Shown piece by piece: positions 3,149 through 28,537 of a stretch of 37,473 nucleotides of DNA; positions within the stretch are counted from its first letter, which is position 1; each line of letters begins with the position of its first letter. The notes beneath the pieces were generated by a model that ran no database searches, was not told the DNA's origin, and saw nothing but the letters and a program-made list of their open reading frames with translations. This stretch comes from a virus. Location: positions 1 to 37,473 of the IMG/VR virus record IMGVR_UViG_3300032073_000082, one strand, 5' to 3'. Position numbers and translations under genes: made by a program.

Positions 3149-3607
3149 ATGACAGAAAAATTAGAATTAGAAGATAAAATTGACTTAATGACAACATGGA
3201 TTGAAAGTGAAGATGTTCAAGGACATGATAGGGCTGGTTGGATAACTAACTGTTGGACTTTCGCTATGGAAGAATATGAAGATACAGGTGTTAAATCTAC
3301 GGTAAGTACCACAATTTCGCAGATTTCTAAAGCAGCAAAAAGATATCAAATTGAAGGATATCCGATTGCTTCAAGAACTTCATCAAACATGACACAAGAA
3401 ATGACTGATTTAATTGCATCGCATGGAAATTTCCTTGATAATATGGTTCAAGCCTTTGAATCATTACCTGAGAACCATGTAATACACTCGAAAAAATCAG
3501 AAGCAAGACCGGACAGAAGATATGCTGACGCTAAGGATTGGAGAAATCATTGGTTGAAGATTATAACTGATAAAGTAAAAGAAGAGGCTAAGGAGGCTAC
3601 TCAATAA
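3149..3607 (+). CDS. Cassette gene, paralogue A
   Basis: 152 residues, ATG at 3149 after CAGGATG. Together with the next gene it forms a paralogous pair that I do not recognise. Shared blocks are W-T-F-A at about 36-39, SKAAKRY, YP-[IL]-ASR, MTQEM, SLPENH and KKS-x-ARPDRRY near 115-125, followed by W-x-x-H-W-L. The ARPDRRY block is the most conserved and most likely functional. Mostly helical, soluble, no signal peptide. The mRNA ends would pair (3105-3127 with 3607-3631). Confidence 0.75.
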   Translation: MTEKLELEDKIDLMTTWIESEDVQGHDRAGWITNCWTFAMEEYEDTGVKSTVSTTISQISKAAKRYQIEGYPIASRTSSNMTQEMTDLIASHGNFLDNMVQAFESLPENHVIHSKKSEARPDRRYADAKDWRNHWLKIITDKVKEEAKEATQ

Positions 3608-3768: not shown

Positions 3769-4227
3769 ATGACAGAACAAATTGAATTACAAAATAAAAT
3801 AGATAAAATAACAACTTGGTTAGAAACAGAAGAAATGGTTAATCACGAAAAAGGTGCTTGGTTAAATAATTCTTGGACTTTCGCCATTGAAGAATATAAT
3901 GAAACTCAAACTAAGAGTGTAGTTACACAAACTATTTCACAGATGTCAAAGGCTGCTAAAAGATATAACATAGCATCTTATCCTTTGGCTTCTAGGTCTA
4001 CTTCAAGCATGACGCAAGAAATGCAAGATTTAGTCTTGGCTCATCAGCCTTTCGTAGATGCTATGTGTGTAGCGTTCGATTCACTACCAGAAAATCATGC
4101 AATACGTTCAAAGAAATCTACTGCACGACCGGATAGGAGATATCTTAACACAAATGATTGGAAACAACACTGGCTCGATTATATTATTAGTAATATAAAA
4201 GAAGACGCAAAGGAGAGTACTCAATAA
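3769..4227 (+). CDS. Cassette gene, paralogue B
   Basis: 152 residues, roughly half identical to the protein encoded at 3149-3607, with the same MTE start, W-T-F-A block, SKAAKRY, YPLASR, MTQEM, SLPENH and ARPDRRY blocks. ATG at 3769 follows CAGGAAG with the same spacing as in paralogue A. The pair most likely arose by duplication of the whole cassette, since leader and trailer are homologous too. Function unknown. Possibly a regulator or binding protein of the repeat array, which is only inference from location. Confidence 0.75.
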   Translation: MTEQIELQNKIDKITTWLETEEMVNHEKGAWLNNSWTFAIEEYNETQTKSVVTQTISQMSKAAKRYNIASYPLASRSTSSMTQEMQDLVLAHQPFVDAMCVAFDSLPENHAIRSKKSTARPDRRYLNTNDWKQHWLDYIISNIKEDAKESTQ

Positions 4228-7380: not shown

Positions 7381-7956
7381 ATGAACATATTTATTTTATC
7401 AGAAGATGCAGAAGAATGTGCTAAGATGATGTGCAACAAACACGTTGTTAAAATGCCAACAGAAAGTTTACAAATGTTATCAACAATAGCAGACCATTTG
7501 GGATATGAAAATGTACCATTCAAACCTGTAATGTTAAATCACCCCTGTACTATTTGGGCTAGAGAAAGTAAACAAAACTTTTCTTTCTTGTTAACCCACA
7601 CTAAGGCTTTATGTGATGAATACACTCTTAGATATGGAAAAATACATAAGGTTCAAGATTTATTATTATTATACAATGTCCTATGGATTAAAGTTCTCAA
7701 TGATTTACCCGACATCGGTTTAACGCCTTTCGCAATAGCAATATCAGAAGATATGTCTTGTAGAAAAACAGAAGGTTTCGATGATATGTCCATAGTAGGA
7801 AAATATCGCCAATATTATTTAGATGATAAATGGCATTTAGGAGATTGGAAAACTAGTCCTCCTTCTTGGTGGCCTGAGAACCATGTAGAAAACAAACGTG
7901 CAGAAGTAAAACTTTTGTGTTCAAATATAATAAAAAGAATGAGGAAATTACAATGA
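7381..7956 (+). CDS. Conserved phage/virus protein, MNIF...KHVVKM family
   Basis: 191 residues after a strong GGAGG. The N-terminus MNIFILSEDAEECAKMMCNK and the following HVVKMPTESLQML, then LNHPCTIWARES, the EYTLRYGK block and a PSWWPENH ending define a family I recognise from many phages (D-K-H-V-V-K-M, N-H-P-C-x-x-W, R-Y-G-K-x-H). Some relatives have been labelled pyrimidine-dimer glycosylase, a label I cannot confirm. Conserved His, Cys and Trp residues suggest an enzyme. It overlaps the next start by ATGA. Confidence 0.7.
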   Translation: MNIFILSEDAEECAKMMCNKHVVKMPTESLQMLSTIADHLGYENVPFKPVMLNHPCTIWARESKQNFSFLLTHTKALCDEYTLRYGKIHKVQDLLLLYNVLWIKVLNDLPDIGLTPFAIAISEDMSCRKTEGFDDMSIVGKYRQYYLDDKWHLGDWKTSPPSWWPENHVENKRAEVKLLCSNIIKRMRKLQ

Positions 7957-11054: not shown

Positions 11055-11258
11055 ATGAAATTGAGAATAATGAATGAAACAGGACATACTGATTTAGATG
11101 TTAATGCATCTGAAATGATTGAACAGTTGGCAGAACACCCAACCCATTGGGTATATGTTGACGGAGACATGGTTAGCCGTGAATCTGTTAACGATATTAA
11201 TTGGGATGATGTTGAATCTGTCAATCTAGTACAAGCAATAGTTGGCGGAAACCAATAA
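11055..11258 (+). CDS. ThiS/SAMP-like ubiquitin-fold protein ending GG-NQ
   Basis: 67 residues from the ATG at 11055 after AGGA. The order fits a beta-grasp fold: beta hairpin KLRIMNETGHTDLDV, helix SEMIEQLAEHP, strand WVYVDGDMVSR, a loop DDVESV and the last strand NLVQAIVGG. The stretch V-D-G-D-M-V-S-R through A-I-V-G-G lines up by eye with ThiS/MoaD/SAMP proteins (V-N-G-x-x-V-P-R ... A-I-x-G-G). Gly64-Gly65 are followed by Asn-Gln, so a protease would have to expose the diglycine. An E1-like and a JAMM gene lie 3.4-4.4 kb downstream. Alternatives: a sulfur carrier, or a tail-assembly beta-grasp protein. Confidence 0.72.
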   Translation: MKLRIMNETGHTDLDVNASEMIEQLAEHPTHWVYVDGDMVSRESVNDINWDDVESVNLVQAIVGGNQ

Positions 11259-11361
11259 GTCAGTCAAGATGTCTTATATCTTATCTTACCATAGAATATA
11301 ATGTCTATCGGTAATTACTATATGTTAATGTTAGTAGTCCCAATAACGGGAGATGTTATCA

Positions 11362-11390
11362 GATAGGTGGGAAGCCTATCAAAAAAAAAA
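11362..11390. promoter_or_regulatory. Hairpin and A10 upstream of the zinc-finger gene
   Basis: GATAGG at 11362 pairs with CCTATC at 11375 around a seven-base loop, followed by ten A and then the GGATGG ribosome site of the gene at 11404. The 145-bp gap after the ubiquitin-like gene is one of the few real spacers in the operon, so a promoter or processing signal is possible. Confidence 0.35.
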
Positions 11391-11403
11391 GGATGGAATA
11401 AAA

Positions 11404-11607
11404 ATGAAATGTAGAAATTGTAATAAAAAACTAGGAACAAGAAATCATACCGCAAGGAAAAATTCTACAACTAATTTATGTTTTTCTTGTGTGCGTAATC
11501 CACCAATGGAAGAAAGGTGTAAGGGCATTACAAGTAAAAATGAAAAATGTAAAATTAGAAAATATAGAGGTAGTGATTACTGTAAAATACACATGAAAAA
11601 AAAGTGA
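11404..11607 (+). CDS. Double zinc-finger small protein (DUF5763-like end)
   Basis: 67 residues. First pair C-R-N-C ... C-F-S-C; second module C-K-G-I-T, C-K and YCKIH, matching the C-x-x-x-T-x-x-x-x-x-C ... Y-C-x-x-H pattern of the DUF5763-type zinc motif, from memory. Start chosen at the ATG after GGATGG; the frame also extends upstream to 11353 through the hairpin, which is unlikely. Basic overall, so nucleic-acid binding is likely. Confidence 0.65.
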   Translation: MKCRNCNKKLGTRNHTARKNSTTNLCFSCVRNPPMEERCKGITSKNEKCKIRKYRGSDYCKIHMKKK

Positions 11608-11613
11608 AGAATA

Positions 11614-11931
11614 ATGGATTATTACAACAAGAATAAACCCGATGAAGAATATGTTCTTCTTTGTAGTAAAGATTTACTAAACACAATAAAAGGTGCGGGT
11701 AATAAAAGAGACCTTTGGTATTCCTTTTGGAGAAGGAAGACTAAAAAAATATCATATAAATTATTATGGTATAGCATAGTTAGTCATATTATTAATGGCA
11801 ACTCAACAATCAAAACAGTAGAAGAATTACGTGATTTTATCTACTATTCAACAAAACAAATTAAAAATAACAAAGAAAACAAATGGAGAGAAAAAAATGA
11901 AAATAAAAATAATAATACCCACAGTAGGTGA
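11614..11931 (+). CDS. Basic hypothetical protein
   Basis: 105 residues, rich in Lys, Asn, Trp and Tyr (RDLWYSFWRRKTKKISYK). The last 35 bases overlap the next gene in another frame, and the Asn/Lys-rich tail there probably reflects that overlap. No family recognised. Confidence 0.55.
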   Translation: MDYYNKNKPDEEYVLLCSKDLLNTIKGAGNKRDLWYSFWRRKTKKISYKLLWYSIVSHIINGNSTIKTVEELRDFIYYSTKQIKNNKENKWREKNENKNNNTHSR

Positions 11932-13267
11932 TGGAGGCAACACTTCAACATCGAGTTTCCTACTCAGAATATCCAATAACCAAAAGAAATTGTATAAACA
12001 ATTATTTACTGGAACAGTAGATAAAAAGGCAACTGAAATAAAACGGTTATCAATCGAACCTACCCCTAGTAAACTATATGGTTCTGATAGAGTTATTATT
12101 AGAACACCCAAAAACATGAATCATAGGGGTGAACATATAATTAATTGCGACAGAATTAGGATGAATCAAGTTAAAGAGGGAATAGACCCTATTTTAGAAA
12201 CAGTTTCTAAAAAAATACAAAACAACTTTTTTCCCACAAAAGATTACGATAACGATAAAGTAGACTTTATGAATAGTATTACCTTCAAATATTTTGACGG
12301 TAACGTTCGTATAATTTATGGAAGAACCAACAAGAGATATTATATCAATACTTTACCTAGAAATAAAGCAGATATTGTCAAGGCAATCAGTAAAGTAATT
12401 CTAAGGGCTTCACTTTCAAGAAGTTCGGTTCAATTGCGTGAGTATTTAAGAAAGGTTACTACCTTTCCTCATAATGTTCTGTATGCTTTAGAAAACAGGA
12501 CACCTTATCATTTTTTAGATGAGTTCCGTAAGACTGATGTTGTTATTAACACGAAACTAATAAGTGATAAAGAATGTGTATTAGAAATATCTGATAGCAC
12601 TTGGGGTGTAATATCAACTAAAGAATTAAGCACTTTCATTGACTACTATAAGTTCGGTAAGAAAAGAAGTAAGAAATGGAATATAGGTGTAACCAACGAG
12701 TTTCTTTGGACTGAATTGATGGGTAGTCCACCGACTAGAACAGAATTAGAAAAAATGAAACAGTGGTTATTGCAACATAGAACTTCTAATATTATAGAAG
12801 ATAGAGCAACTAAATTATTGTTCGACATTGCGGCTGAAACTCCTCAACTTGATTTCGTGCAATTCAGAAATCCTAAGAATAAAGCACTGTTCGTTCATGG
12901 AAAATATTCTGATTGGGTTATTACTTATACAGGAGACGGTATGAAAAGAGGTAATCAAGACGTTAACACACATCAAGTAGTAGGATTCAGTCAAGAAAAA
13001 GGCAATTGGCACGGTATGAAACTTTCAGGTTCTATTTGTATTGACAATGTTTCTAAGGGTGCTAGTATCGGAGACCAACTAACAGCGAGGGCATTAGCAT
13101 TAATCAATGAAGACATAGCGGCACATCATCTTTACACAATTAAACCGTTAATAACAGAAGATTTAAGAAATGGTGTTAAAGTAATGCCGAGATTAGACAG
13201 GAGTAAATTAAATGCGTGGAGTCAAAGAAAGTGTAATGAATATTTACAAAAAAAGGAGAATAAATAA
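11897..13267 (+). CDS. Large protein of unknown family; possible E2-like C-terminal part
   Basis: 456 residues from ATG 11897 (GGAGAG upstream); an in-frame ATG at 11831 lies inside the previous gene. The N-terminal two thirds match nothing I recognise. Near the C-terminus, LSGSICIDN with Cys381, preceded by H-G-M and followed by a long helix LTARALALINEDI, resembles the G-x-I-C-L-D active-site region of ubiquitin E2 enzymes and the helix after it. The gene lies between a ubiquitin-like gene and E1/JAMM genes, so an E2 role is worth testing, but motif evidence alone is weak and an HPN motif is not visible. Confidence 0.6.
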   Translation: MKIKIIIPTVGDGGNTSTSSFLLRISNNQKKLYKQLFTGTVDKKATEIKRLSIEPTPSKLYGSDRVIIRTPKNMNHRGEHIINCDRIRMNQVKEGIDPILETVSKKIQNNFFPTKDYDNDKVDFMNSITFKYFDGNVRIIYGRTNKRYYINTLPRNKADIVKAISKVILRASLSRSSVQLREYLRKVTTFPHNVLYALENRTPYHFLDEFRKTDVVINTKLISDKECVLEISDSTWGVISTKELSTFIDYYKFGKKRSKKWNIGVTNEFLWTELMGSPPTRTELEKMKQWLLQHRTSNIIEDRATKLLFDIAAETPQLDFVQFRNPKNKALFVHGKYSDWVITYTGDGMKRGNQDVNTHQVVGFSQEKGNWHGMKLSGSICIDNVSKGASIGDQLTARALALINEDIAAHHLYTIKPLITEDLRNGVKVMPRLDRSKLNAWSQRKCNEYLQKKENK

Positions 13268-13354
13268 ATGAAAATATGTAATAAATGTAATAAAGAATTA
13301 GGAGACCTACGGGTTAAAGACGGCGATTGTTGTAGAATAGTGGTGATGAAATGA
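13268..13354 (+). CDS. Micro zinc-ribbon protein, coupled to TFB
   Basis: 28 residues: C-N-K-C near the start and a C-C pair near residue 21. It begins directly after the previous stop behind AAAGGAG, and its stop overlaps the TFB start (ATGA). Possibly only a coupling ORF, but the cysteine spacing argues for a folded zinc peptide. Confidence 0.45.
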   Translation: MKICNKCNKELGDLRVKDGDCCRIVVMK

Positions 13355-14349
13355 AATGTTCAGAATGTAATTCTATTACTACAACCTTCGATGAAAGAAT
13401 GGGTGAAACTATTTGTTCTGATTGTGGGTTAATATTATCAATAAACGTGTTTGAAGAAACTAGTGTATCAGTCAGAAGTAGTAACACAGGAAACGCATTT
13501 GGTAATCCCTTTTCTAAAACCCGCGATGCCGACTTTAACGGATTGGGTTCAATAATTGGAAGACAAGATATTACAAACAGGAAGACCTTCTCTTTATTTG
13601 AAGAACAAAAAAGGACTGATTATGATTCATCAACATACAACTTTAGGTTATCTGCAAGTATATTTTTATCTTATTATAATGGTAAAAACTTACTTGCAGA
13701 AGCAACAAGGAAATATAAAACTATGAAAGAAGAACATTTAGTAAGAGGACTACCAATAGAAAACGTAGCGGCGGGAATAGTTTATTATGTGTTAAAAGAC
13801 AAGGGAATATCTGTTTCCTTGAAAGAATTTTCAAGACAGAGTAAAATACCTATTAAAAATATAGTAAGGACATCCAAAAGAGCCAAGAAGAAGTTCGGCT
13901 GTACTGATTTCAATTTTATAAATATAGATAATATAATAACTGAAACCATAGAACGTATTCGTGTTAGGCAGCAAGAAACAATAACAAGATATAATAAAAC
14001 ACATAAAAATAGTCCTCAAGGATATAAAACTTATAGAAACAACAGAACTAGTTTTGAAGACATACAAGGGGACTTAAGACAGGATTGTTATAGATTTGCT
14101 GAGTATGTTAAAAGATGTTATGATTTGTTTGATGAGACATTAACTAAAAGCGATATAATAGCGTCAATGTGGGTAGTATCTCAAATTTACAACTCACAAA
14201 GTATCACAACTGCTGCACTTTCCGAGTGTGGTGGTTTTAGTGAAGTAACACTAAGAGATAAAAGAAAGAGAATCTGTTCTAATCTAAAATTAGATATAGA
14301 CAAGATTAAATTATATACTATTAATAATATAATAGACGGAGTAAGATAA
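13351..14349 (+). CDS. tfb: Transcription initiation factor TFB (TFIIB homologue)
   Basis: 332 residues. N-terminal zinc ribbon C3-x2-C6 ... C22-x2-C25 with the typical S-D-C-G-L. A B-finger/linker-like segment with RTSSNTG-type sequence follows, then two cyclin-like helical repeats, the first around GLPIENVAAGIVYYVLKDKG. Host TFB recruits RNA polymerase to TATA-bound TBP. A viral copy, divergent in the second repeat, would direct host polymerase to viral promoters with different BRE preference. It sits among the ubiquitin-like/E1/JAMM genes. Confidence 0.85.
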   Translation: MKCSECNSITTTFDERMGETICSDCGLILSINVFEETSVSVRSSNTGNAFGNPFSKTRDADFNGLGSIIGRQDITNRKTFSLFEEQKRTDYDSSTYNFRLSASIFLSYYNGKNLLAEATRKYKTMKEEHLVRGLPIENVAAGIVYYVLKDKGISVSLKEFSRQSKIPIKNIVRTSKRAKKKFGCTDFNFINIDNIITETIERIRVRQQETITRYNKTHKNSPQGYKTYRNNRTSFEDIQGDLRQDCYRFAEYVKRCYDLFDETLTKSDIIASMWVVSQIYNSQSITTAALSECGGFSEVTLRDKRKRICSNLKLDIDKIKLYTINNIIDGVR

Positions 14350-14350
14350 A

Positions 14351-14635
14351 ATGATAAGAAGAAAAATGACAATGGAAACAACAACAGGAAGAACTACAAT
14401 AGATATTAATTATTGTACTGCTTTCTCTATAAGAGAAATAACAAAGAAAGGAGTCTTGTCTAAGGCAAAGTATGAATTAGATATTCATATGCAAAGTGGT
14501 ACTATTTTTACCGCTACTGTTACAGATAAAGAACTACTAATCTTTACAAACTTATGGGAAACAGAACGAGAATATCACTTGTCTCTTTCTGAAACAGAAC
14601 CAAAAGAAATATATGAAAAAGAGGAATTAGAATGA
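14351..14635 (+). CDS. Small hypothetical protein
   Basis: 94 residues; a beta-rich core (STFS-like INYCTAFSIREI, YELDIHMQSGTIFTATV) and an acidic C-terminal tail. It starts one base after TFB and overlaps the E1-like start by four bases, so it is cotranslated with both. No family recognised. Confidence 0.6.
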   Translation: MIRRKMTMETTTGRTTIDINYCTAFSIREITKKGVLSKAKYELDIHMQSGTIFTATVTDKELLIFTNLWETEREYHLSLSETEPKEIYEKEELE

Positions 14636-15261
14636 AAACAAAGAAATTAAAACAAAGAAAATTATTGATAATTGGAGCAGGTGGAATAGGTAGTTACCTA
14701 GCATCTTTCCTAGAAAGAATTAGCGAAGGAAGACAGGCATTGTATGATATTACAATTTACGATGATGATAAGGTAGAAGAAAAGAACCTATCCTATCAAA
14801 ACTTTAGTGTAGAAGATATTGGTAAAGCCAAAGTAAAAGTGCTTGGTAACAAAATAGGAATACAACCTGCAATAACAGACACAAGAGAACATCAAGTACT
14901 TACAGCAAAACAATTAACTGAAAAGAAATATGATTTAGTTGTTTGTTGTGTAGATAATTTAGCAGCAAGAAAACTAATGTATAAAGTAGGTCATGGTGAA
15001 GACAGTCCTGTTAAGTGGTTAGACCTTAGAGCGCAAGGTAGGAACGGAGTATTGATTTCCTACAAAGTCAATCCAATTCTAATACCCGATTTACTTGTCG
15101 GCGCTGAAGGTTCATTCAGTTGTCAAGGTGGCGATTGGGATGGTTCGGCTAAAGATATTAGTACTATGCATATTGCCATAGCGGGTATTGCGACACAGTG
15201 GATTCAACGTTGGTTCAATGATAATAATGACGTAGCAGACAAAATGGTGGTGAATGTATGA
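14632..15261 (+). CDS. E1-like adenylyltransferase (ThiF/MoeB/UbaA family)
   Basis: 209 residues, a minimal version of the family (usually 240-270). GAGGIGS at 15-21 is the nucleotide loop. D-D-D-K-V-E-E-K-N-L (44-53) matches the D-x-D-x-V-x-x-x-N-L ATP/Mg site. Lys in GKAKVKVL and Asp in CCVDNLAARK complete the active site. Cys164 in F-S-C-Q-G-G is the best candidate for the thioester Cys. No zinc CxxC pairs are seen. It should adenylate the C-terminal Gly of a ubiquitin-fold partner, most obviously the protein at 11055. Alternative: sulfur transfer. Confidence 0.85.
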   Translation: MKTKKLKQRKLLIIGAGGIGSYLASFLERISEGRQALYDITIYDDDKVEEKNLSYQNFSVEDIGKAKVKVLGNKIGIQPAITDTREHQVLTAKQLTEKKYDLVVCCVDNLAARKLMYKVGHGEDSPVKWLDLRAQGRNGVLISYKVNPILIPDLLVGAEGSFSCQGGDWDGSAKDISTMHIAIAGIATQWIQRWFNDNNDVADKMVVNV

Positions 15262-15500
15262 GTAAAGAAGACACAGAAATAGATGATTTAATAGAAGAAG
15301 ATGTAGGAAACATAGTTAATGTAATATCAACAGATGGTTTCTATAAACAAGCAGAAATTGTAGAGGTATGTTGTCCTGTTTGTCTTGAAAAGTTCTTAGG
15401 AACTAAAAGACACGCAGGTGGTTTCATAGCCGGACATAGAGCATTCCATGAGTTTGAGAACTCTCAAGACTTTATGGTAGAACAAATGGGAGGAATATAA
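15258..15500 (+). CDS. C2H2-type zinc-finger protein between E1 and JAMM genes
   Basis: 80 residues. C-C-P-V-C-L-E-K-F near 38-46, then GHRAFHEF gives a C-x2-C ... H-x3-H site. The N-terminus is acidic. Coupled by overlap to the E1-like gene and followed three bases later by the JAMM gene. The protein ends M-G-G-I. It could be a substrate adaptor or E3-like factor, but only location suggests this. Confidence 0.6.
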   Translation: MSKEDTEIDDLIEEDVGNIVNVISTDGFYKQAEIVEVCCPVCLEKFLGTKRHAGGFIAGHRAFHEFENSQDFMVEQMGGI

Positions 15501-15502
15501 AA

Positions 15503-16075
15503 ATGAAAGAAGAAATAAAAGAAGAAATAAATAATGAAGAAAATGAAAAGGCAATGGAAGAGTTTGATTGGAAACAACATATTAGAGATGTTTACTCTGA
15601 TATGCTAAAAACCGAAGGCGGTGTTAATTTTATTAGACCGTGTGCAGATACAGAAATGTTCTTATCCGCTATTTGGAAGATGTCTGATGAAGTATTAGAG
15701 GGAATGGAAGTACAAGTAGTAATAGACGATAAAGATGATTTGTATATTAGTAGCGGAACACCTGCCTTTGTATCCTTTGAAGGACATGAAGACGAACTAG
15801 TAAATGGCGCACCAATGAGAATACCGATTAAGAGTTGGATTCATACTCATCCTTTCGGTGAAGCATACTTAAGCAGTACAGATTGGAGAACTGTTAACAC
15901 ATGGCAACCTATAATGAAGAGTGCAGTAGTATTAGGGGATAATCAATACCTAGCGGTTAACATGAATAATGAACAATACGAAGAAGGGACTTATTCTGCA
16001 AAGAAAGTTTTCTATGGTTTACTACAACAAACAGTTTTTGACGATATAGAACCTACAACGGGTGGTGAAGAGTAA
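15503..16075 (+). CDS. JAMM/JAB-domain metalloprotease
   Basis: 190 residues. The zinc signature is present: His114-Thr-His116-Pro, then Ser124-x-x-Asp127 in WIHTHPFGEAYLSSTDW, matching H-x-H-P-x(6)-x-S-x-x-D. The upstream catalytic Glu is probably in the 84-100 region but is not certain. An acidic N-terminal 40 residues precede the domain. JAMM enzymes cut after Gly-Gly of ubiquitin-fold proteins; here a natural substrate is the GG-NQ end of the protein at 11055 and its conjugates. Compare HvJAMM1 in archaeal SAMPylation. Phage-tail JAB proteins are the main alternative, but this copy is far from tail genes and next to an E1. Confidence 0.85.
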   Translation: MKEEIKEEINNEENEKAMEEFDWKQHIRDVYSDMLKTEGGVNFIRPCADTEMFLSAIWKMSDEVLEGMEVQVVIDDKDDLYISSGTPAFVSFEGHEDELVNGAPMRIPIKSWIHTHPFGEAYLSSTDWRTVNTWQPIMKSAVVLGDNQYLAVNMNNEQYEEGTYSAKKVFYGLLQQTVFDDIEPTTGGEE

Positions 16076-16845: not shown

Positions 16846-16925
16846 GTGGCTGTCTTTATTGTGAAGATACTGTTTATCGGCATGGTTTTTGTTACGAATG
16901 TTATTGTAGGGAAAAGGGCTTCTGA
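16842..16925 (+). CDS. Micro zinc-ribbon protein
   Basis: 27 residues from GTG 16842, overlapping the lipoprotein stop and ending on the next start (TGATG). C-L-Y-C and C-Y-E-C-Y-C form a compact cysteine cluster. AGAGGAACAGA precedes it. Confidence 0.5.
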   Translation: MSGCLYCEDTVYRHGFCYECYCREKGF

Positions 16926-17329
16926 TGGTTAAACACAAGGCGGTTACTATTCAGTTCCCTGCCCCACTACCTGCTGAAATACTATGTCCTATTTGTGAAG
17001 GAAATAAATGTAAAGTTTGTGATATGACAGGCAAGATGAAAATGGTAGTTGATGCTAAAGTCCCAATACAAAGAAATCTAATAGTAAAATATGTTTCTAA
17101 TCATTTAGAATCTATTGCATTAGAATTATCTAGAAACTATGGTCTAGTGCCGGAAGTAAATACCGAAGAAGTATTTGAGTGTGATGAAAAAAGACAATAT
17201 GAAATTGTAAAGATAAGTAGTTTAGGTGGGGTCATTTGGATTGCCAATAGATTAGATGATTTAGAATCACCTAGATATTTCACTACAAAGAAAGAACTTA
17301 CTAGATTTAAGGAAGGTTGGTTTACATGA
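16925..17329 (+). CDS. DnaJ-like zinc-knuckle protein
   Basis: 134 residues. C-P-I-C-E-G-N-K-C-K-V-C-D-M-T-G at about 21-36 is a DnaJ-type CxxCxGx(n)CxxC knuckle. The rest is an alpha/beta domain without a motif I know (LVPEVNTEEVFECDEKRQ, WIANRLDDLESPRYF). It overlaps the next start by ATGA. Confidence 0.6.
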   Translation: MVKHKAVTIQFPAPLPAEILCPICEGNKCKVCDMTGKMKMVVDAKVPIQRNLIVKYVSNHLESIALELSRNYGLVPEVNTEEVFECDEKRQYEIVKISSLGGVIWIANRLDDLESPRYFTTKKELTRFKEGWFT

Positions 17330-25569: not shown

Positions 25570-27270
25570 ATGATAATTAATGAAATTAAAAATGGCATTG
25601 GTTTAGTTTGGAGAGATGAAAACAATAACAGACTACAAGAAACTGTTTCTTTGAAAGACTACAAACATTACTTTTTCATTAAGGCTACGTCAACTAGACA
25701 TAATAATTTGTTAGTTAAAGACAACAATACAAGAGGCAAGTTTCAAGTTGACCTGTCTTATGAATTAGGAGATTGGGTTTCACTAGAAGGTGAATCTTTA
25801 GTAAAAGTTTCGTGGGGAACTAAATCTCCTAGTCTTAGGTATCAGATTAGAGAGAAGTTAGAAGAGTTAGGAGTTGACTCATACGAAGCAGATATACCAC
25901 ATCATTATCGGTATGCTGTTGATGAGTTAAGTTCTATTCCCGATTATAAAATGCGTAAGTGTTTTTGGGATATGGAGTGGATGCAAGGCGGAGAACATGA
26001 TGGTAAGATTACCTGTATAGTAATATACGATAGTTACGATGATGAGTATAGTGTATTCGCTTGGTTTCCTAACTTAGAGCAGAAACTTAGTATGGAGTTC
26101 CTTTACAAATTAAGAAGGAATTATAACTTAAAAATATTCAAGTCAGAAGAATCTATGCTTGACAACTTCTTAACATATTTTATTCAGAAGAGACCGGATA
26201 TGTTAATCTCATGGTTCGGATGGAAATTCGACTTACCTAAACTAATAGAGAGAAATAGTGCCTACAATATTGATTCAAGAATGTTATCTCCTTTTAATGA
26301 AGTAAGAGGGGTTTCTTGGAAGGATAACAAAGTTAAGATATATCCTAAACAAGTAAACGGGTCTTCTCCTATAACACAACCAATTAAGGGAGTGATTACA
26401 GTAGCATTAGATTTAGTTTTTGAAAGACAGTGGAATGATTCACAAAGAGGAACATTACCTTCTATGGCTTTAGATTATATTTCTGAATCTGTTTTAGGCG
26501 ATAAGAAATTAGTTAGTGAAAAGTTTCCTGATAAAAATGAGTTCTTTGCTAGAGGTTGGTTAGAAGATACTGAAACATATCTAGAGTATGCGATAAAGGA
26601 TGTTGAGTTAATCAAAAGAATTGATGATGAGAACCACTGTATTGATTCAGTTTTAGCATTACAGAAATTACTTATTGCTCCTTTTGATGCTTGCTTCTAT
26701 GCAAGTAATATGGGTGGAATATATTTTATGCGTAACGCTAATTGGAAAGCACCAACAGGAAAGAAAGGTGAGAAGGTTAACTACGATGGAGCAATGATAT
26801 ACAATCCATTAACAGAAGGCACAAATGGAAGATATGACAACGTAGCCGCGTTTGATTTCGCTTCTCTATATCCTTCAATGATTATTTCACGGAACATTTC
26901 ATGGGAATCTAAATCAAAACTTCCAACAGAGTTTGCAGTTAACTTAGCAATACCTAGAGATTTTAGTGAAGTGAAGGAAGAGAAGATGTTGTATTACAAT
27001 ACTGATAAATTAGGACTATTACCTAAGTCTCTTATTGAACTTAAAGCATTAAGAAACGAATACAAAAAGAATATGAAAGAAGCAACAACCAAAGATGATA
27101 AGATTAAATGGAATAATAATCAAATGGCGGTCAAGAGATTGATGGCTTCATTTTACGGCATCACCGCGTATCAAGGATTTGGTTGGGCTGATATAGACCT
27201 AGCCGCTAGTATTACTGCTAGTGCTAGAGAGGCTATTAGATTAGCCGCATTTAAAGCGAGGGAATTATAA
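25570..27270 (+). CDS. polB: Family B DNA polymerase, N-terminal part (split gene)
   Basis: 566 residues covering exonuclease, motif A and motif B. Exo I Asp134-x-Glu136 (FWDMEW); Exo II Asp221, where the usual Asn of N-G-x-x-F-D is Phe216; Exo III Tyr339-x3-Asp343. Motif A DFASLYPSMI at 428-437; motif B KRLMASFYG at 521-529, with Ala instead of the common Asn. It ends FKAREL, just where motif C should follow, and motif C lies in the gene at 27611. The two parts presumably assemble into one enzyme. Confidence 0.92.
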   Translation: MIINEIKNGIGLVWRDENNNRLQETVSLKDYKHYFFIKATSTRHNNLLVKDNNTRGKFQVDLSYELGDWVSLEGESLVKVSWGTKSPSLRYQIREKLEELGVDSYEADIPHHYRYAVDELSSIPDYKMRKCFWDMEWMQGGEHDGKITCIVIYDSYDDEYSVFAWFPNLEQKLSMEFLYKLRRNYNLKIFKSEESMLDNFLTYFIQKRPDMLISWFGWKFDLPKLIERNSAYNIDSRMLSPFNEVRGVSWKDNKVKIYPKQVNGSSPITQPIKGVITVALDLVFERQWNDSQRGTLPSMALDYISESVLGDKKLVSEKFPDKNEFFARGWLEDTETYLEYAIKDVELIKRIDDENHCIDSVLALQKLLIAPFDACFYASNMGGIYFMRNANWKAPTGKKGEKVNYDGAMIYNPLTEGTNGRYDNVAAFDFASLYPSMIISRNISWESKSKLPTEFAVNLAIPRDFSEVKEEKMLYYNTDKLGLLPKSLIELKALRNEYKKNMKEATTKDDKIKWNNNQMAVKRLMASFYGITAYQGFGWADIDLAASITASAREAIRLAAFKAREL

Positions 27271-27614
27271 TGAGTAAAAGATGGAAGAAAAGAGTTAATC
27301 AAAACAATAAAGATACAATGAAATTATCAGAATTAATAGCATTTATGATGAGTAAATATCCTATGACCGAAGAAGAACACAACGCAATATTAAATTGGGA
27401 AGAGTTCAACATTAATATAGAAAGGCAGACTACAACAGAAGAACAAGCAAAGCAGACATTTTCAATAGAAGCGATTGCAGGTGTTACTGCTACCTTTCAT
27501 CTTTGGCTCTTAGGAAGAGTAAAAGATAGGTGGGAATCAGAAGATTGGGATTTAGATAAAGCACCCCATGCTATTACTGTTAATGCTAAAGTGGATTGGA
27601 GTAATGACATATGA
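27270..27614 (+). CDS. Small gene between the two PolB halves
   Basis: 114 residues. Start overlaps the PolB-N stop (TAATG) and stop overlaps the PolB-C start (ATGA), so it fits exactly into the split. Basic N-terminus, then helices and VTATFHLWLLGRVKDRW. No intein, HNH, GIY-YIG or LAGLIDADG motif seen. It could be a subunit that bridges the polymerase halves or a passenger. Function unknown. Confidence 0.65.
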   Translation: MSKRWKKRVNQNNKDTMKLSELIAFMMSKYPMTEEEHNAILNWEEFNINIERQTTTEEQAKQTFSIEAIAGVTATFHLWLLGRVKDRWESEDWDLDKAPHAITVNAKVDWSNDI

Positions 27615-28537
27615 AAGTAGTTTACGGACATACTGATTCAATTTATGTTCAGTGTGATGATATAGAAAAAGCAAAGAACGTTTGTAGTGAAATTAACGAC
27701 CATGTTAGGAAATCATTTCCTAATCTATTAGGTTTAGATGAACACCCTGTTACTTTAGAGTTTGAAAAGTATTACAAATCACTAGGAGTAGGTGCAACAA
27801 AGAATAGAAATGCAGGTTTAATAACTTGGAAGGATGGAGAATATCTTGAAGAAGACGAGTTTGTTCTTACAGGTTTCTCTGCTAAAAGAGTTGCACAAAC
27901 AAAACTAGCGAAGGAAACACAAATGAAAGTATTGCGAATGTGGGTTGATGGAGTTGAAGAAGAAGTAGTCTCTAGTTACTTACATGGTTTATTTAATACT
28001 GTTATTTCCGGCGATATAGAATTATCAATGCTTACTAACAGAACTAGATTTCGTGAAGAAAGATTCAAGGTGAAATGTATGGGTGAATGTAAAAAAATGA
28101 AATGGGGAAAAGTTTTCTCACTATCAGAAATCATTGAGAATATTGCAGAACACCGCAGTAATTTTTCTAGCGATAAGTGGAAGTGTTGCAATAAACCTAA
28201 TCTTAGAACATTACAAGATAAGAAACCCACAATCGGTTCGGGTATAGAAGGGGTATTGTATTACAACTCTTTTAATGAAGTGCAAATAGATGACTCTTAT
28301 CTTTATATTAAAATTAAAGATAACACCACTACATACATACACCCACTTACACAAGAAGATACAATTCCTTCTTGGGTTTCAGTTAGACATGAATCAGAAC
28401 TATCTCACTTTACTCCCGATTATTTACATTATGCTTATCAAGTAGTTAGTAAGGCAGAACCTATCTACAACGCAATGGGGTGGAATATAGATAATATTAC
28501 TAAAAGTAGGAATCAAGATTTGGGGGATTGGTTTTGA
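27611..28537 (+). CDS. polB: Family B DNA polymerase, C-terminal part (split gene)
   Basis: 308 residues starting MKVVYGHTDSIYVQ, motif C with the catalytic Asp of H-T-D-S, then the palm end and thumb (LTGFSAKRVAQTKLAKETQ corresponds to the usual G-x-E-x-x-R-x-D-x-x). An insertion with C-x3-C (KCMGECKK) and C-C (KWKCCNKP) could bind zinc. The last residues NQDLGDWF resemble a PIP box for the clamp. Together with 25570-27270 it makes a full-length polymerase. Confidence 0.9.
   Translation: MKVVYGHTDSIYVQCDDIEKAKNVCSEINDHVRKSFPNLLGLDEHPVTLEFEKYYKSLGVGATKNRNAGLITWKDGEYLEEDEFVLTGFSAKRVAQTKLAKETQMKVLRMWVDGVEEEVVSSYLHGLFNTVISGDIELSMLTNRTRFREERFKVKCMGECKKMKWGKVFSLSEIIENIAEHRSNFSSDKWKCCNKPNLRTLQDKKPTIGSGIEGVLYYNSFNEVQIDDSYLYIKIKDNTTTYIHPLTQEDTIPSWVSVRHESELSHFTPDYLHYAYQVVSKAEPIYNAMGWNIDNITKSRNQDLGDWF

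What the first reader, a model, noticed from the sequence alone, without database searches (positions are those of the whole stretch)
11055..16075. Viral ubiquitin-like conjugation module: Ubl, E1-like and JAMM protease
Seen: a ThiS/SAMP-like beta-grasp protein with C-terminal Gly-Gly, a ThiF/UbaA-like E1 with G-x-G-G-I-G and D-x-D-x-V-E-x-x-N-L, and a JAMM protease with H-T-H-P-x(7)-S-x-x-D, all within 5 kb of one operon. Known: archaea run SAMPylation with UbaA and HvJAMM1; bacterial CBASS and Bil operons use E1/E2/JAB sets in defence. Inference: the virus carries its own tagging and untagging system, to modify host or virion proteins or to counter host conjugation. Interleaving with TFB suggests it may target transcription.
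Basis: partly seen in the sequence, partly recalled or inferred. Interest (0 to 1): 0.92.

Follow-up and report, generated by a model that had tools for sequence, protein, structure and literature searches.

The report
Archaeal virus ubiquitin-like tagging module
Viruses of abundant marine archaea carry a conserved set of genes for a ubiquitin-like protein tag, the enzyme that activates it, a protease that trims or removes it and a probable transfer protein, and about half of the sampled host species carry their own, related version, some with tandem 'polyubiquitin-like' tag genes.

Summary
The 67-aa protein (11055-11258) is a predicted ubiquitin-like beta-grasp. The ThiF/E1 (14632-15261) keeps its adenylation motifs plus an invariant Cys aligned with the canonical E1 Cys. 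The JAMM protease (15503-16075) keeps E/H/H/S/D. In related virus contigs that span the region, all 72 loci found through Ubl carry Ubl, ORF 11894-13267, TFB, E1 and JAMM, and all 49 found through JAMM carry the last four in the same order. All 102 distinct viral Ubls end in GG plus 0-4 residues. ORF 11894-13267 is a fourth core component whose C-terminal domain has one invariant Cys: a candidate transfer (E2/E3-like) enzyme, but no fold or profile match to known E2s was found. Second, hosts have a chromosomal counterpart: in 116 Poseidoniales-order genomes, E1, JAMM and Ubl each occur in 55 and the Cys domain in 60, nearly always together, with tandem poly-Ubl genes, Ubl-Ubl-E1 and E1-JAMM fusions. 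Viral and host E1s form separate clades; one host operon carries a virus-type JAMM. Best reading: a reversible Ubl-conjugation cascade kept by the virus under purifying selection. Substrates and activity are untested; 'targets transcription' is unsupported beyond gene order.

The parts
11055..11258 (+). Ubiquitin-like modifier, 67 aa, ends VGG-NQ (two residues beyond Gly-Gly)
   Evidence: homologous to host Ubls
11894..13267 (+). 457-aa fourth core component; C-terminal domain (about residues 297-412) with invariant Cys382 in G-x-I-C-I-D; candidate E2/E3-like transfer protein
   Evidence: helix, four strands, Cys, helices; host vs virus profile E 2.9e-12; no E2 match
13351..14349 (+). Diverged transcription factor B (Zn ribbon plus weak TFIIB repeat); constant neighbour, role in the system not shown
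14351..14635 (+). 94-aa ORF, stop overlaps the E1 start; present in only some relatives and in varying position
14632..15261 (+). Stand-alone E1/ThiF-like activating enzyme, GxGGIG, DxDxVExxNL, invariant Cys164 aligned with the canonical E1 catalytic Cys; lacks the Zn CxxC pairs
15258..15500 (+). 80-aa CxxC...HxxxH zinc-finger-like protein, overlaps the E1 stop; found in 93 of 111 sequences of the first set
15503..16075 (+). JAMM/MPN+ metalloprotease, E69, H114, H116, S124, D127 invariant; AMSH-like
16925..17329 (+). 134-aa CPIC...CxxC protein, near-constant downstream neighbour of the module; relation to it unknown

Best explanation
The module is a virus-encoded, reversible ubiquitin-like conjugation cascade. 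The JAMM protease trims the 0-4 residue tail from the Ubl to expose Gly-Gly (and later removes the tag). The E1 adenylates the Ubl and loads it on its own Cys164. The protein of ORF 11894-13267 probably takes the Ubl on its invariant Cys382 and passes it to substrate lysines. It is a divergent relative of a chromosomal system of the Poseidoniales hosts, so the virus either runs its own tag in parallel or redirects the host tag. Shown here: gene identities of Ubl, E1 and JAMM, active-site conservation, strict co-occurrence and gene order, homology with the host system, natural fusions among the parts, purifying selection. Inferred: that conjugation takes place, that ORF 11894-13267 is the transfer enzyme, and when in infection it acts. 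Unknown: the substrates.
For: Fold and motifs. Co-occurrence in viruses: 72/72 and 49/49 spanning loci; 15 of 16 PolB-selected virus records of at least 54 kb carry the E1, the other having PolB about 4 kb from its end. Purifying selection: dN/dS 0.04-0.19 for Ubl, E1 and JAMM. Host counterpart: E1, JAMM and Ubl each in 55 of 116 genomes, 49 with all three and 56 with none, Fisher p 5e-21 to 5e-28 (the p-values ignore relatedness of the genomes); Cys domain in 54 of the 55 E1 genomes, p 5e-25. Fusions Ubl-Ubl-E1 and E1-JAMM. Tandem Ubls separated by short linkers after VGG, as in polyubiquitin precursors that need a protease. Compact operon Cys-protein, Ubl, E1, JAMM in hosts. A host operon with a virus-type JAMM.
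Against: No biochemistry. The candidate transfer protein has no detectable similarity to canonical archaeal E2 profiles (hhalign probability 0.1-0.2), to any Pfam E2 or, as a whole-chain model, to solved E2 structures. The E1 lacks the conserved Arg of NLxRQ found in canonical E1s (Tyr or His instead). A Ubl, E1 and JAMM with a short Ubl tail also describes sulfur-carrier systems.
Confidence: 0.7

Rival explanations
1. Sulfur-carrier module: the JAMM exposes the Ubl Gly-Gly, the E1 makes a thiocarboxylate, and the sulfur goes to a cofactor, tRNA or nucleotide, as in QbsE/QbsD/QbsC, PdtH/G/F or CysO/Mec.
For: Same three parts as the siderophore and cysteine-synthase operons tabulated in PMC1779556 (rows 4a-4d); E1 has ThiF/MoeB-like hits; host poly-Ubl weakly matches ThiS and SAMP1 models. 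The short-tail precedent of QbsE is from my own knowledge.
Against: No sulfur-donor, rhodanese or target biosynthetic gene among the larger ORFs scanned; the E1 lacks the Zn CxxC pairs of the MoeB/ThiF-type rows aligned with it; tandem poly-Ubl genes and a strictly co-occurring Cys-domain family in hosts fit conjugation better.
Confidence: 0.13
2. Counter-system: the host Poseidoniales Ubl system is antiviral (like Bil or type II CBASS) and the viral parts exist to sabotage it: the JAMM strips host tags and the viral Ubl and E1 act as decoys.
For: Homologous host system patchy, in 47% of sampled species, as defence systems often are; one host operon has a virus-type JAMM, so parts may be exchangeable; Borg elements carry many AMSH-like deSAMPylases suggested to counter host tagging (PMC12660748).
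Against: A saboteur needs no intact E1, Ubl with Gly-Gly and Cys-protein, yet all are kept together in every spanning locus with catalytic residues invariant. Viral E1s form one clade apart from host E1s (SH-aLRT 99), not recent copies.
Confidence: 0.15
3. Virion morphogenesis: Ubl and JAMM serve tail assembly like lambda gpI and gpK.
For: Lambda-type phages pair a Ubl with a JAB peptidase in tail assembly (PMC1779556); a host poly-Ubl matches Lambda_tail_I at 5e-5.
Against: The genes sit in the replication and transcription block next to TFB, ligase, RFC and PolB, no NlpC domain was found, an E1 is present, and hosts have the same system on their chromosomes.
Confidence: 0.02

Closest known systems
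Bacterial BilABCD / Bub operons (Ubl, E2, JAB protease, E1)
   Same: Ubl, E1 and JAMM in one locus; E1 domain similarity to BilD (2.6e-8) and CBASS E1-E2 (1.6e-12) in PADLOC
   Different: Single-domain E1 of 209 aa, single short Ubl, no recognisable E2; carried by archaeal viruses and Poseidoniales; JAMM and Ubl match no PADLOC model
Bacterial poly-Ubl systems (type 6e of Iyer, Burroughs and Aravind 2006)
   Same: Tandem Ubl proteins, E1-JAB fusions and an E2-like partner in the bacterial set; hosts here have tandem Ubls and E1-JAMM fusions
   Different: No Pfam match of the Ubls to known prokaryotic ubiquitin families; virus version has a single Ubl and separate E1 and JAMM
Archaeal SAMPylation (SAMP, UbaA, HvJAMM1)
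   Same: Ubl with Gly-Gly, single E1, JAMM desampylase; no canonical E2
   Different: E1 scores 40 bits against a 450-bit cut-off for UbaA; lacks Zn CxxC pairs; six of eight host genomes searched hold a further, diverged E1/ThiF match besides this one
PRTRC system
   Same: Best NCBIfam hit of the E1 is PRTRC_ThiF (4.9e-18)
   Different: 65 bits against a 144.75-bit cut-off; no other PRTRC protein matched
Borg JAMM/AMSH-like deSAMPylases
   Same: AMSH-like JAMM on an extrachromosomal archaeal element (PMC12660748)
   Different: Borgs are described there with proteases and SAMP; here Ubl, E1, JAMM and a Cys-protein form one conserved module in tailed viruses

Membership tests
JAMM/MPN+ metalloproteases | Glu, HxHP, x(6), S, xx, D active site | tested here: met
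   E69, H114, H116, S124, D127 invariant in 32 diverse members; E, H, H, S, D also invariant with hosts added
JAMM/MPN+ metalloproteases | Profile similarity to known members | tested here: met
   hmmsearch to AMSH-LP 2e-5; a virus-type JAMM in L392 hits Prok-JAB 2.1e-5, just under the cut-off
E1/ThiF superfamily | ThiF Rossmann domain with adenylation motifs | tested here: met
   Pfam ThiF 68 bits, cut-off 28; motifs invariant
E1/ThiF superfamily | Conserved catalytic Cys | tested here: met
   Cys164 invariant and in the column of the canonical E1 Cys; activity not tested
Ubiquitin-like beta-grasp modifiers | Beta-grasp fold | tested here: met
   AF2 model and Foldseek hits to ubiquitin; predicted only, Foldseek E above 0.001
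Ubiquitin-like beta-grasp modifiers | C-terminal Gly-Gly, free or exposable | tested here: met
   102 of 102 distinct viral Ubls end GG plus 0-4 residues
BilABCD / type II CBASS | E2 with UBC fold in the locus | tested here: inconclusive
   ORF 11894-13267 has a fitting order of elements around an invariant Cys but no profile or fold match
BilABCD / type II CBASS | Antiphage effect | not testable with these tools
   needs experiments
SAMP/UbaA | UbaA-type E1 (NF047750) | tested here: not met
   40 bits, cut-off 450
PRTRC system | PRTRC ThiF and partner proteins over cut-off | tested here: not met
   65 bits, cut-off 144.75; partners not matched
E2 ubiquitin-conjugating enzymes | Sequence or structural similarity to the UBC fold | tested here: not met
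   hhalign probability 0.1-0.2 against archaeal UQ_con; Foldseek shows no E2 among the 50 listed; the C-terminal domain alone was not searched by structure
Sulfur-carrier (QbsE/CysO type) | Rhodanese, sulfur donor or target pathway in the locus | tested here: not met
   none among the larger ORFs scanned; the window is a fragment, so genes elsewhere are not excluded

The most novel reading that the evidence does not exclude
Magroviruses and their Poseidoniales hosts share a previously undescribed archaeal ubiquitin-type system with polyubiquitin-like precursors, an E1, a JAMM protease and a transfer enzyme of a new family (invariant Cys in V-x-G-x-S-G ... I-C-I ... G-D ... L-x-N-D) that stands in for canonical E2, and the virus runs its own complete cascade with it.
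Probability: 0.45. Interest if true: 0.93.

Novelty: new variant of a known kind. Interest (0 to 1): 0.85.

Why it matters
Bacterial viruses with single ubiquitin-related parts and bacterial defence operons with whole cascades are known, but I found no report of an archaeal virus group with a conserved Ubl-E1-JAMM module, nor of its chromosomal counterpart with tandem Ubl genes in Poseidoniales, which are among the most abundant marine archaea. It gives a natural pair of viral and host tagging systems, a possible new transfer-enzyme family, and a route to ask whether ubiquitin-like tagging in archaea is part of virus takeover or of defence.

Tried and rejected
E2 identity of ORF 11894-13267: Pfam, NCBIfam, PADLOC, PDB profile search, Foldseek and hhalign against archaeal E2s all negative; kept only as a candidate. 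Filing as PRTRC, SAMP/UbaA or Bil: defining features not met or inconclusive. GenBank phages: no Ubl or JAMM match; the E1 only matches ThiF-like genes, mostly of Bacteroides crAss-type phages, over the Rossmann part. Named magroviruses ON649702 and OR863078 are not in the collections, so their annotation could not be compared. Philosof 2017 and Prabhu 2025, two main magrovirus gene surveys, are not held, so prior annotation there cannot be excluded. A Prok-E2_B search rang nowhere, controls included, so no bacterial E2 comparison was made. A search for a Ubl next to E1 in the L281-type host operons found none; such genomes (for example G007) carry it elsewhere.
Full report
What is there. The window is a 37,473-bp IMG/VR virus record. 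Its + strand carries a replication and transcription block: UvrD-like helicase, RFC-like AAA protein, split family-B polymerase, PD-(D/E)XK and ERCC4 nucleases, ATP-dependent ligase, TFB. This set matches the magroviruses of Poseidoniales as described by ICTV (PMC10768690). Inside it lie a 67-aa Ubl (11055-11258), a 457-aa ORF (11894-13267), TFB (13351-14349), an E1 (14632-15261) and a JAMM protease (15503-16075), with overlapping or abutting starts and stops from TFB to JAMM.

Identity of the three proteins. E1: Pfam ThiF, 68 bits against a 28-bit cut-off; its profile hits MccB, Cap2, UBA5, MoeB and E1 structures. In an alignment with canonical E1s, the invariant Cys164 of S-C-Q falls in the column of the catalytic Cys, while the Zn CxxC pairs are absent and the NLxRQ Arg is Tyr (virus) or mostly His (host). 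JAMM: no Pfam hit from the single sequence, but E69, H114, H116, S124 and D127 are invariant and the profile reaches AMSH-like proteases at 2e-5. Ubl: an alignment of 39 relatives gives an AF2 model of mean pLDDT 85.6 with two strands, a helix, two strands, a short helix and a last strand; the listed Foldseek hits are nearly all ubiquitin, NEDD8 and SUMO chains, with probability about 0.8-0.99, although no E-value is below 0.001. The tail is GG plus 0-4 residues in 102 of 102 distinct viral sequences.

Conservation in viruses. Scans of IMG/VR found relatives at 288 (JAMM), 354 (E1, profile) and 201 (Ubl, profile) stretches, of which the best 80 each were kept. In Ubl-anchored loci with at least 8.5 kb downstream, 72 of 72 have all five genes; in JAMM-anchored loci with at least 7.6 kb upstream, 49 of 49 have E1, TFB and the 457-aa ORF and 47 a detectable Ubl, all in one order. 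Of 16 records of at least 54 kb chosen by another marker (PolB), 15 have the E1; the exception carries PolB about 4 kb from its end. dN/dS against near relatives is 0.04-0.19 for Ubl, E1 and JAMM; TFB is less constrained, 0.16-0.36.

The fourth component. ORF 11894-13267 (start taken at 11894) lies between Ubl and TFB in every spanning locus. Its C-terminal domain holds one invariant Cys (382) in G-x-I-C-I-D followed by G-D-Q. In the AF2 model (pLDDT 85.5) the domain runs helix, four strands, Cys loop, helices, the order of elements of the UBC fold by my own reading. No search confirms this: Pfam, PDB profiles, Foldseek of the whole chain and hhalign to archaeal E2s are negative. I therefore call it a candidate transfer enzyme only.

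The host counterpart. A genome scan with the viral E1 profile found diverged E1-JAMM pairs in Poseidoniales contigs, several between genes that look like housekeeping genes such as enolase and ribonucleotide reductase (my reading of the translations), as compact operons Cys-domain protein, Ubl, E1, JAMM. In one draw of 116 genomes of the order, E1 (E at most 1e-20), JAMM and Ubl each occur in 55; 49 have all three and 56 have none (Fisher p 5e-21 to 5e-28, without correction for relatedness). The Cys domain occurs in 60, including 54 of the 55 with E1, usually as two or three matches per genome in frames of about 230-850 aa. One carrier contig is 2.06 Mb long, which speaks against mis-binned virus. 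That the order is Poseidoniales is inferred from record titles of loci in it. Many hosts have head-to-tail Ubls in one ORF (two to four, most ending GLVGG or similar, with short spacers; a few end in AG), and natural fusions Ubl-Ubl-E1 and E1-JAMM occur. Canonical E2 (UQ_con) was not found in the carriers G001, G007, G010 and G013, though it occurs in 40 of 145 genomes of the phylum.

Relationship. Viral E1s form one clade (SH-aLRT 99) and host E1s another (91); this is a quick tree and the root is weak, so direction of transfer is open. The JAMM tree agrees except that one host operon (L392) carries a JAMM inside the virus clade, next to a host-type E1 and Ubl: gene exchange between virus and host, or a mis-assembly. 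A third lineage in Methanoperedens and Aenigmatarchaeota contigs has a large protein ending in the same Cys domain directly upstream of the E1 (hhalign against the host domain E 6.5e-7, probability 92; against the viral domain not significant) and a small Gly-Gly-ending protein downstream, with no JAMM motif seen on the held DNA. So Cys-domain protein, E1 and a Gly-Gly-ending small protein look like the core and JAMM a frequent partner.

Mechanism. The most economical reading is a reversible conjugation cascade, with JAMM for maturation and removal, E1 for activation and the Cys-domain protein for transfer. The sulfur-carrier reading is disfavoured by absent sulfur genes, absent Zn CxxC pairs, tandem Ubls and the Cys-domain family. 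The pure-sabotage reading is disfavoured because complete catalytic parts are always kept. The substrates are unknown. In an archaeon, a TATA-binding protein is reported to be tagged with a Ubl and degraded (PMC4895103, abstract), so a transcription link is possible, but TFB adjacency alone does not show it.

Novelty. Prokaryotic Ubl-E1-JAB systems are a known kind (PMC1779556; PMC11354881), so this is a new variant, on archaeal tailed viruses and with a host counterpart. Searches of the open literature found no mention, but two key magrovirus surveys could not be read. One marine group II single cell was reported to have other ubiquitin-system parts, a UCH protease and RING proteins (PMC4327156).

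Limits.

Noticed in passing
L408-L423, e.g. L408:1326-2177 (G086:C25): Host genes with two to four head-to-tail Ubl domains separated by short spacers, a polyubiquitin-like precursor in Poseidoniales.
   Followed up: partly
L392:3599-4099: Virus-type JAMM gene inside a host-type Ubl-E1 operon, suggesting virus-host gene exchange.
   Followed up: partly
L270:6894-9833, L275:6863-10056, L306:6839-10146: Third E1 lineage in Aenigmatarchaeota and Methanoperedens contigs: about 700-aa protein with the same Cys domain, E1, then a small protein ending in GG.
   Followed up: partly
L299:271-8203: Thalassarchaeum MAG contig with two Ubls, three Cys-domain proteins, a TFB, an AAA ATPase and an E1 in a row.
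   Followed up: partly
25570-27270 and 27611-28537: Family-B DNA polymerase split into two ORFs with a small ORF between, as named for magroviruses by ICTV.
   Followed up: no
3149-3607 and 3769-4227: Two tandem paralogous 152-aa ORFs of unknown function.
   Followed up: no
7381-7956: Pyrimidine dimer DNA glycosylase-like gene (Pfam Pyr_excise 3.6e-10) in the virus.
   Followed up: no
hits H2-H40 (crAss-type phages): Bacteroides crAss-type phages carry ThiF/E1-like genes annotated as thiamine biosynthesis protein.
   Followed up: no
L281:10163-10396 and equivalents: Conserved 77-80 aa protein directly downstream of host E1-JAMM pairs, no Pfam family.
   Followed up: no
phylum draw (e.g. L398, L400, L403): Canonical E2 (UQ_con) genes in 40 of 145 genomes of the same archaeal phylum, apparently in genomes other than the carriers of this system.
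   Followed up: no
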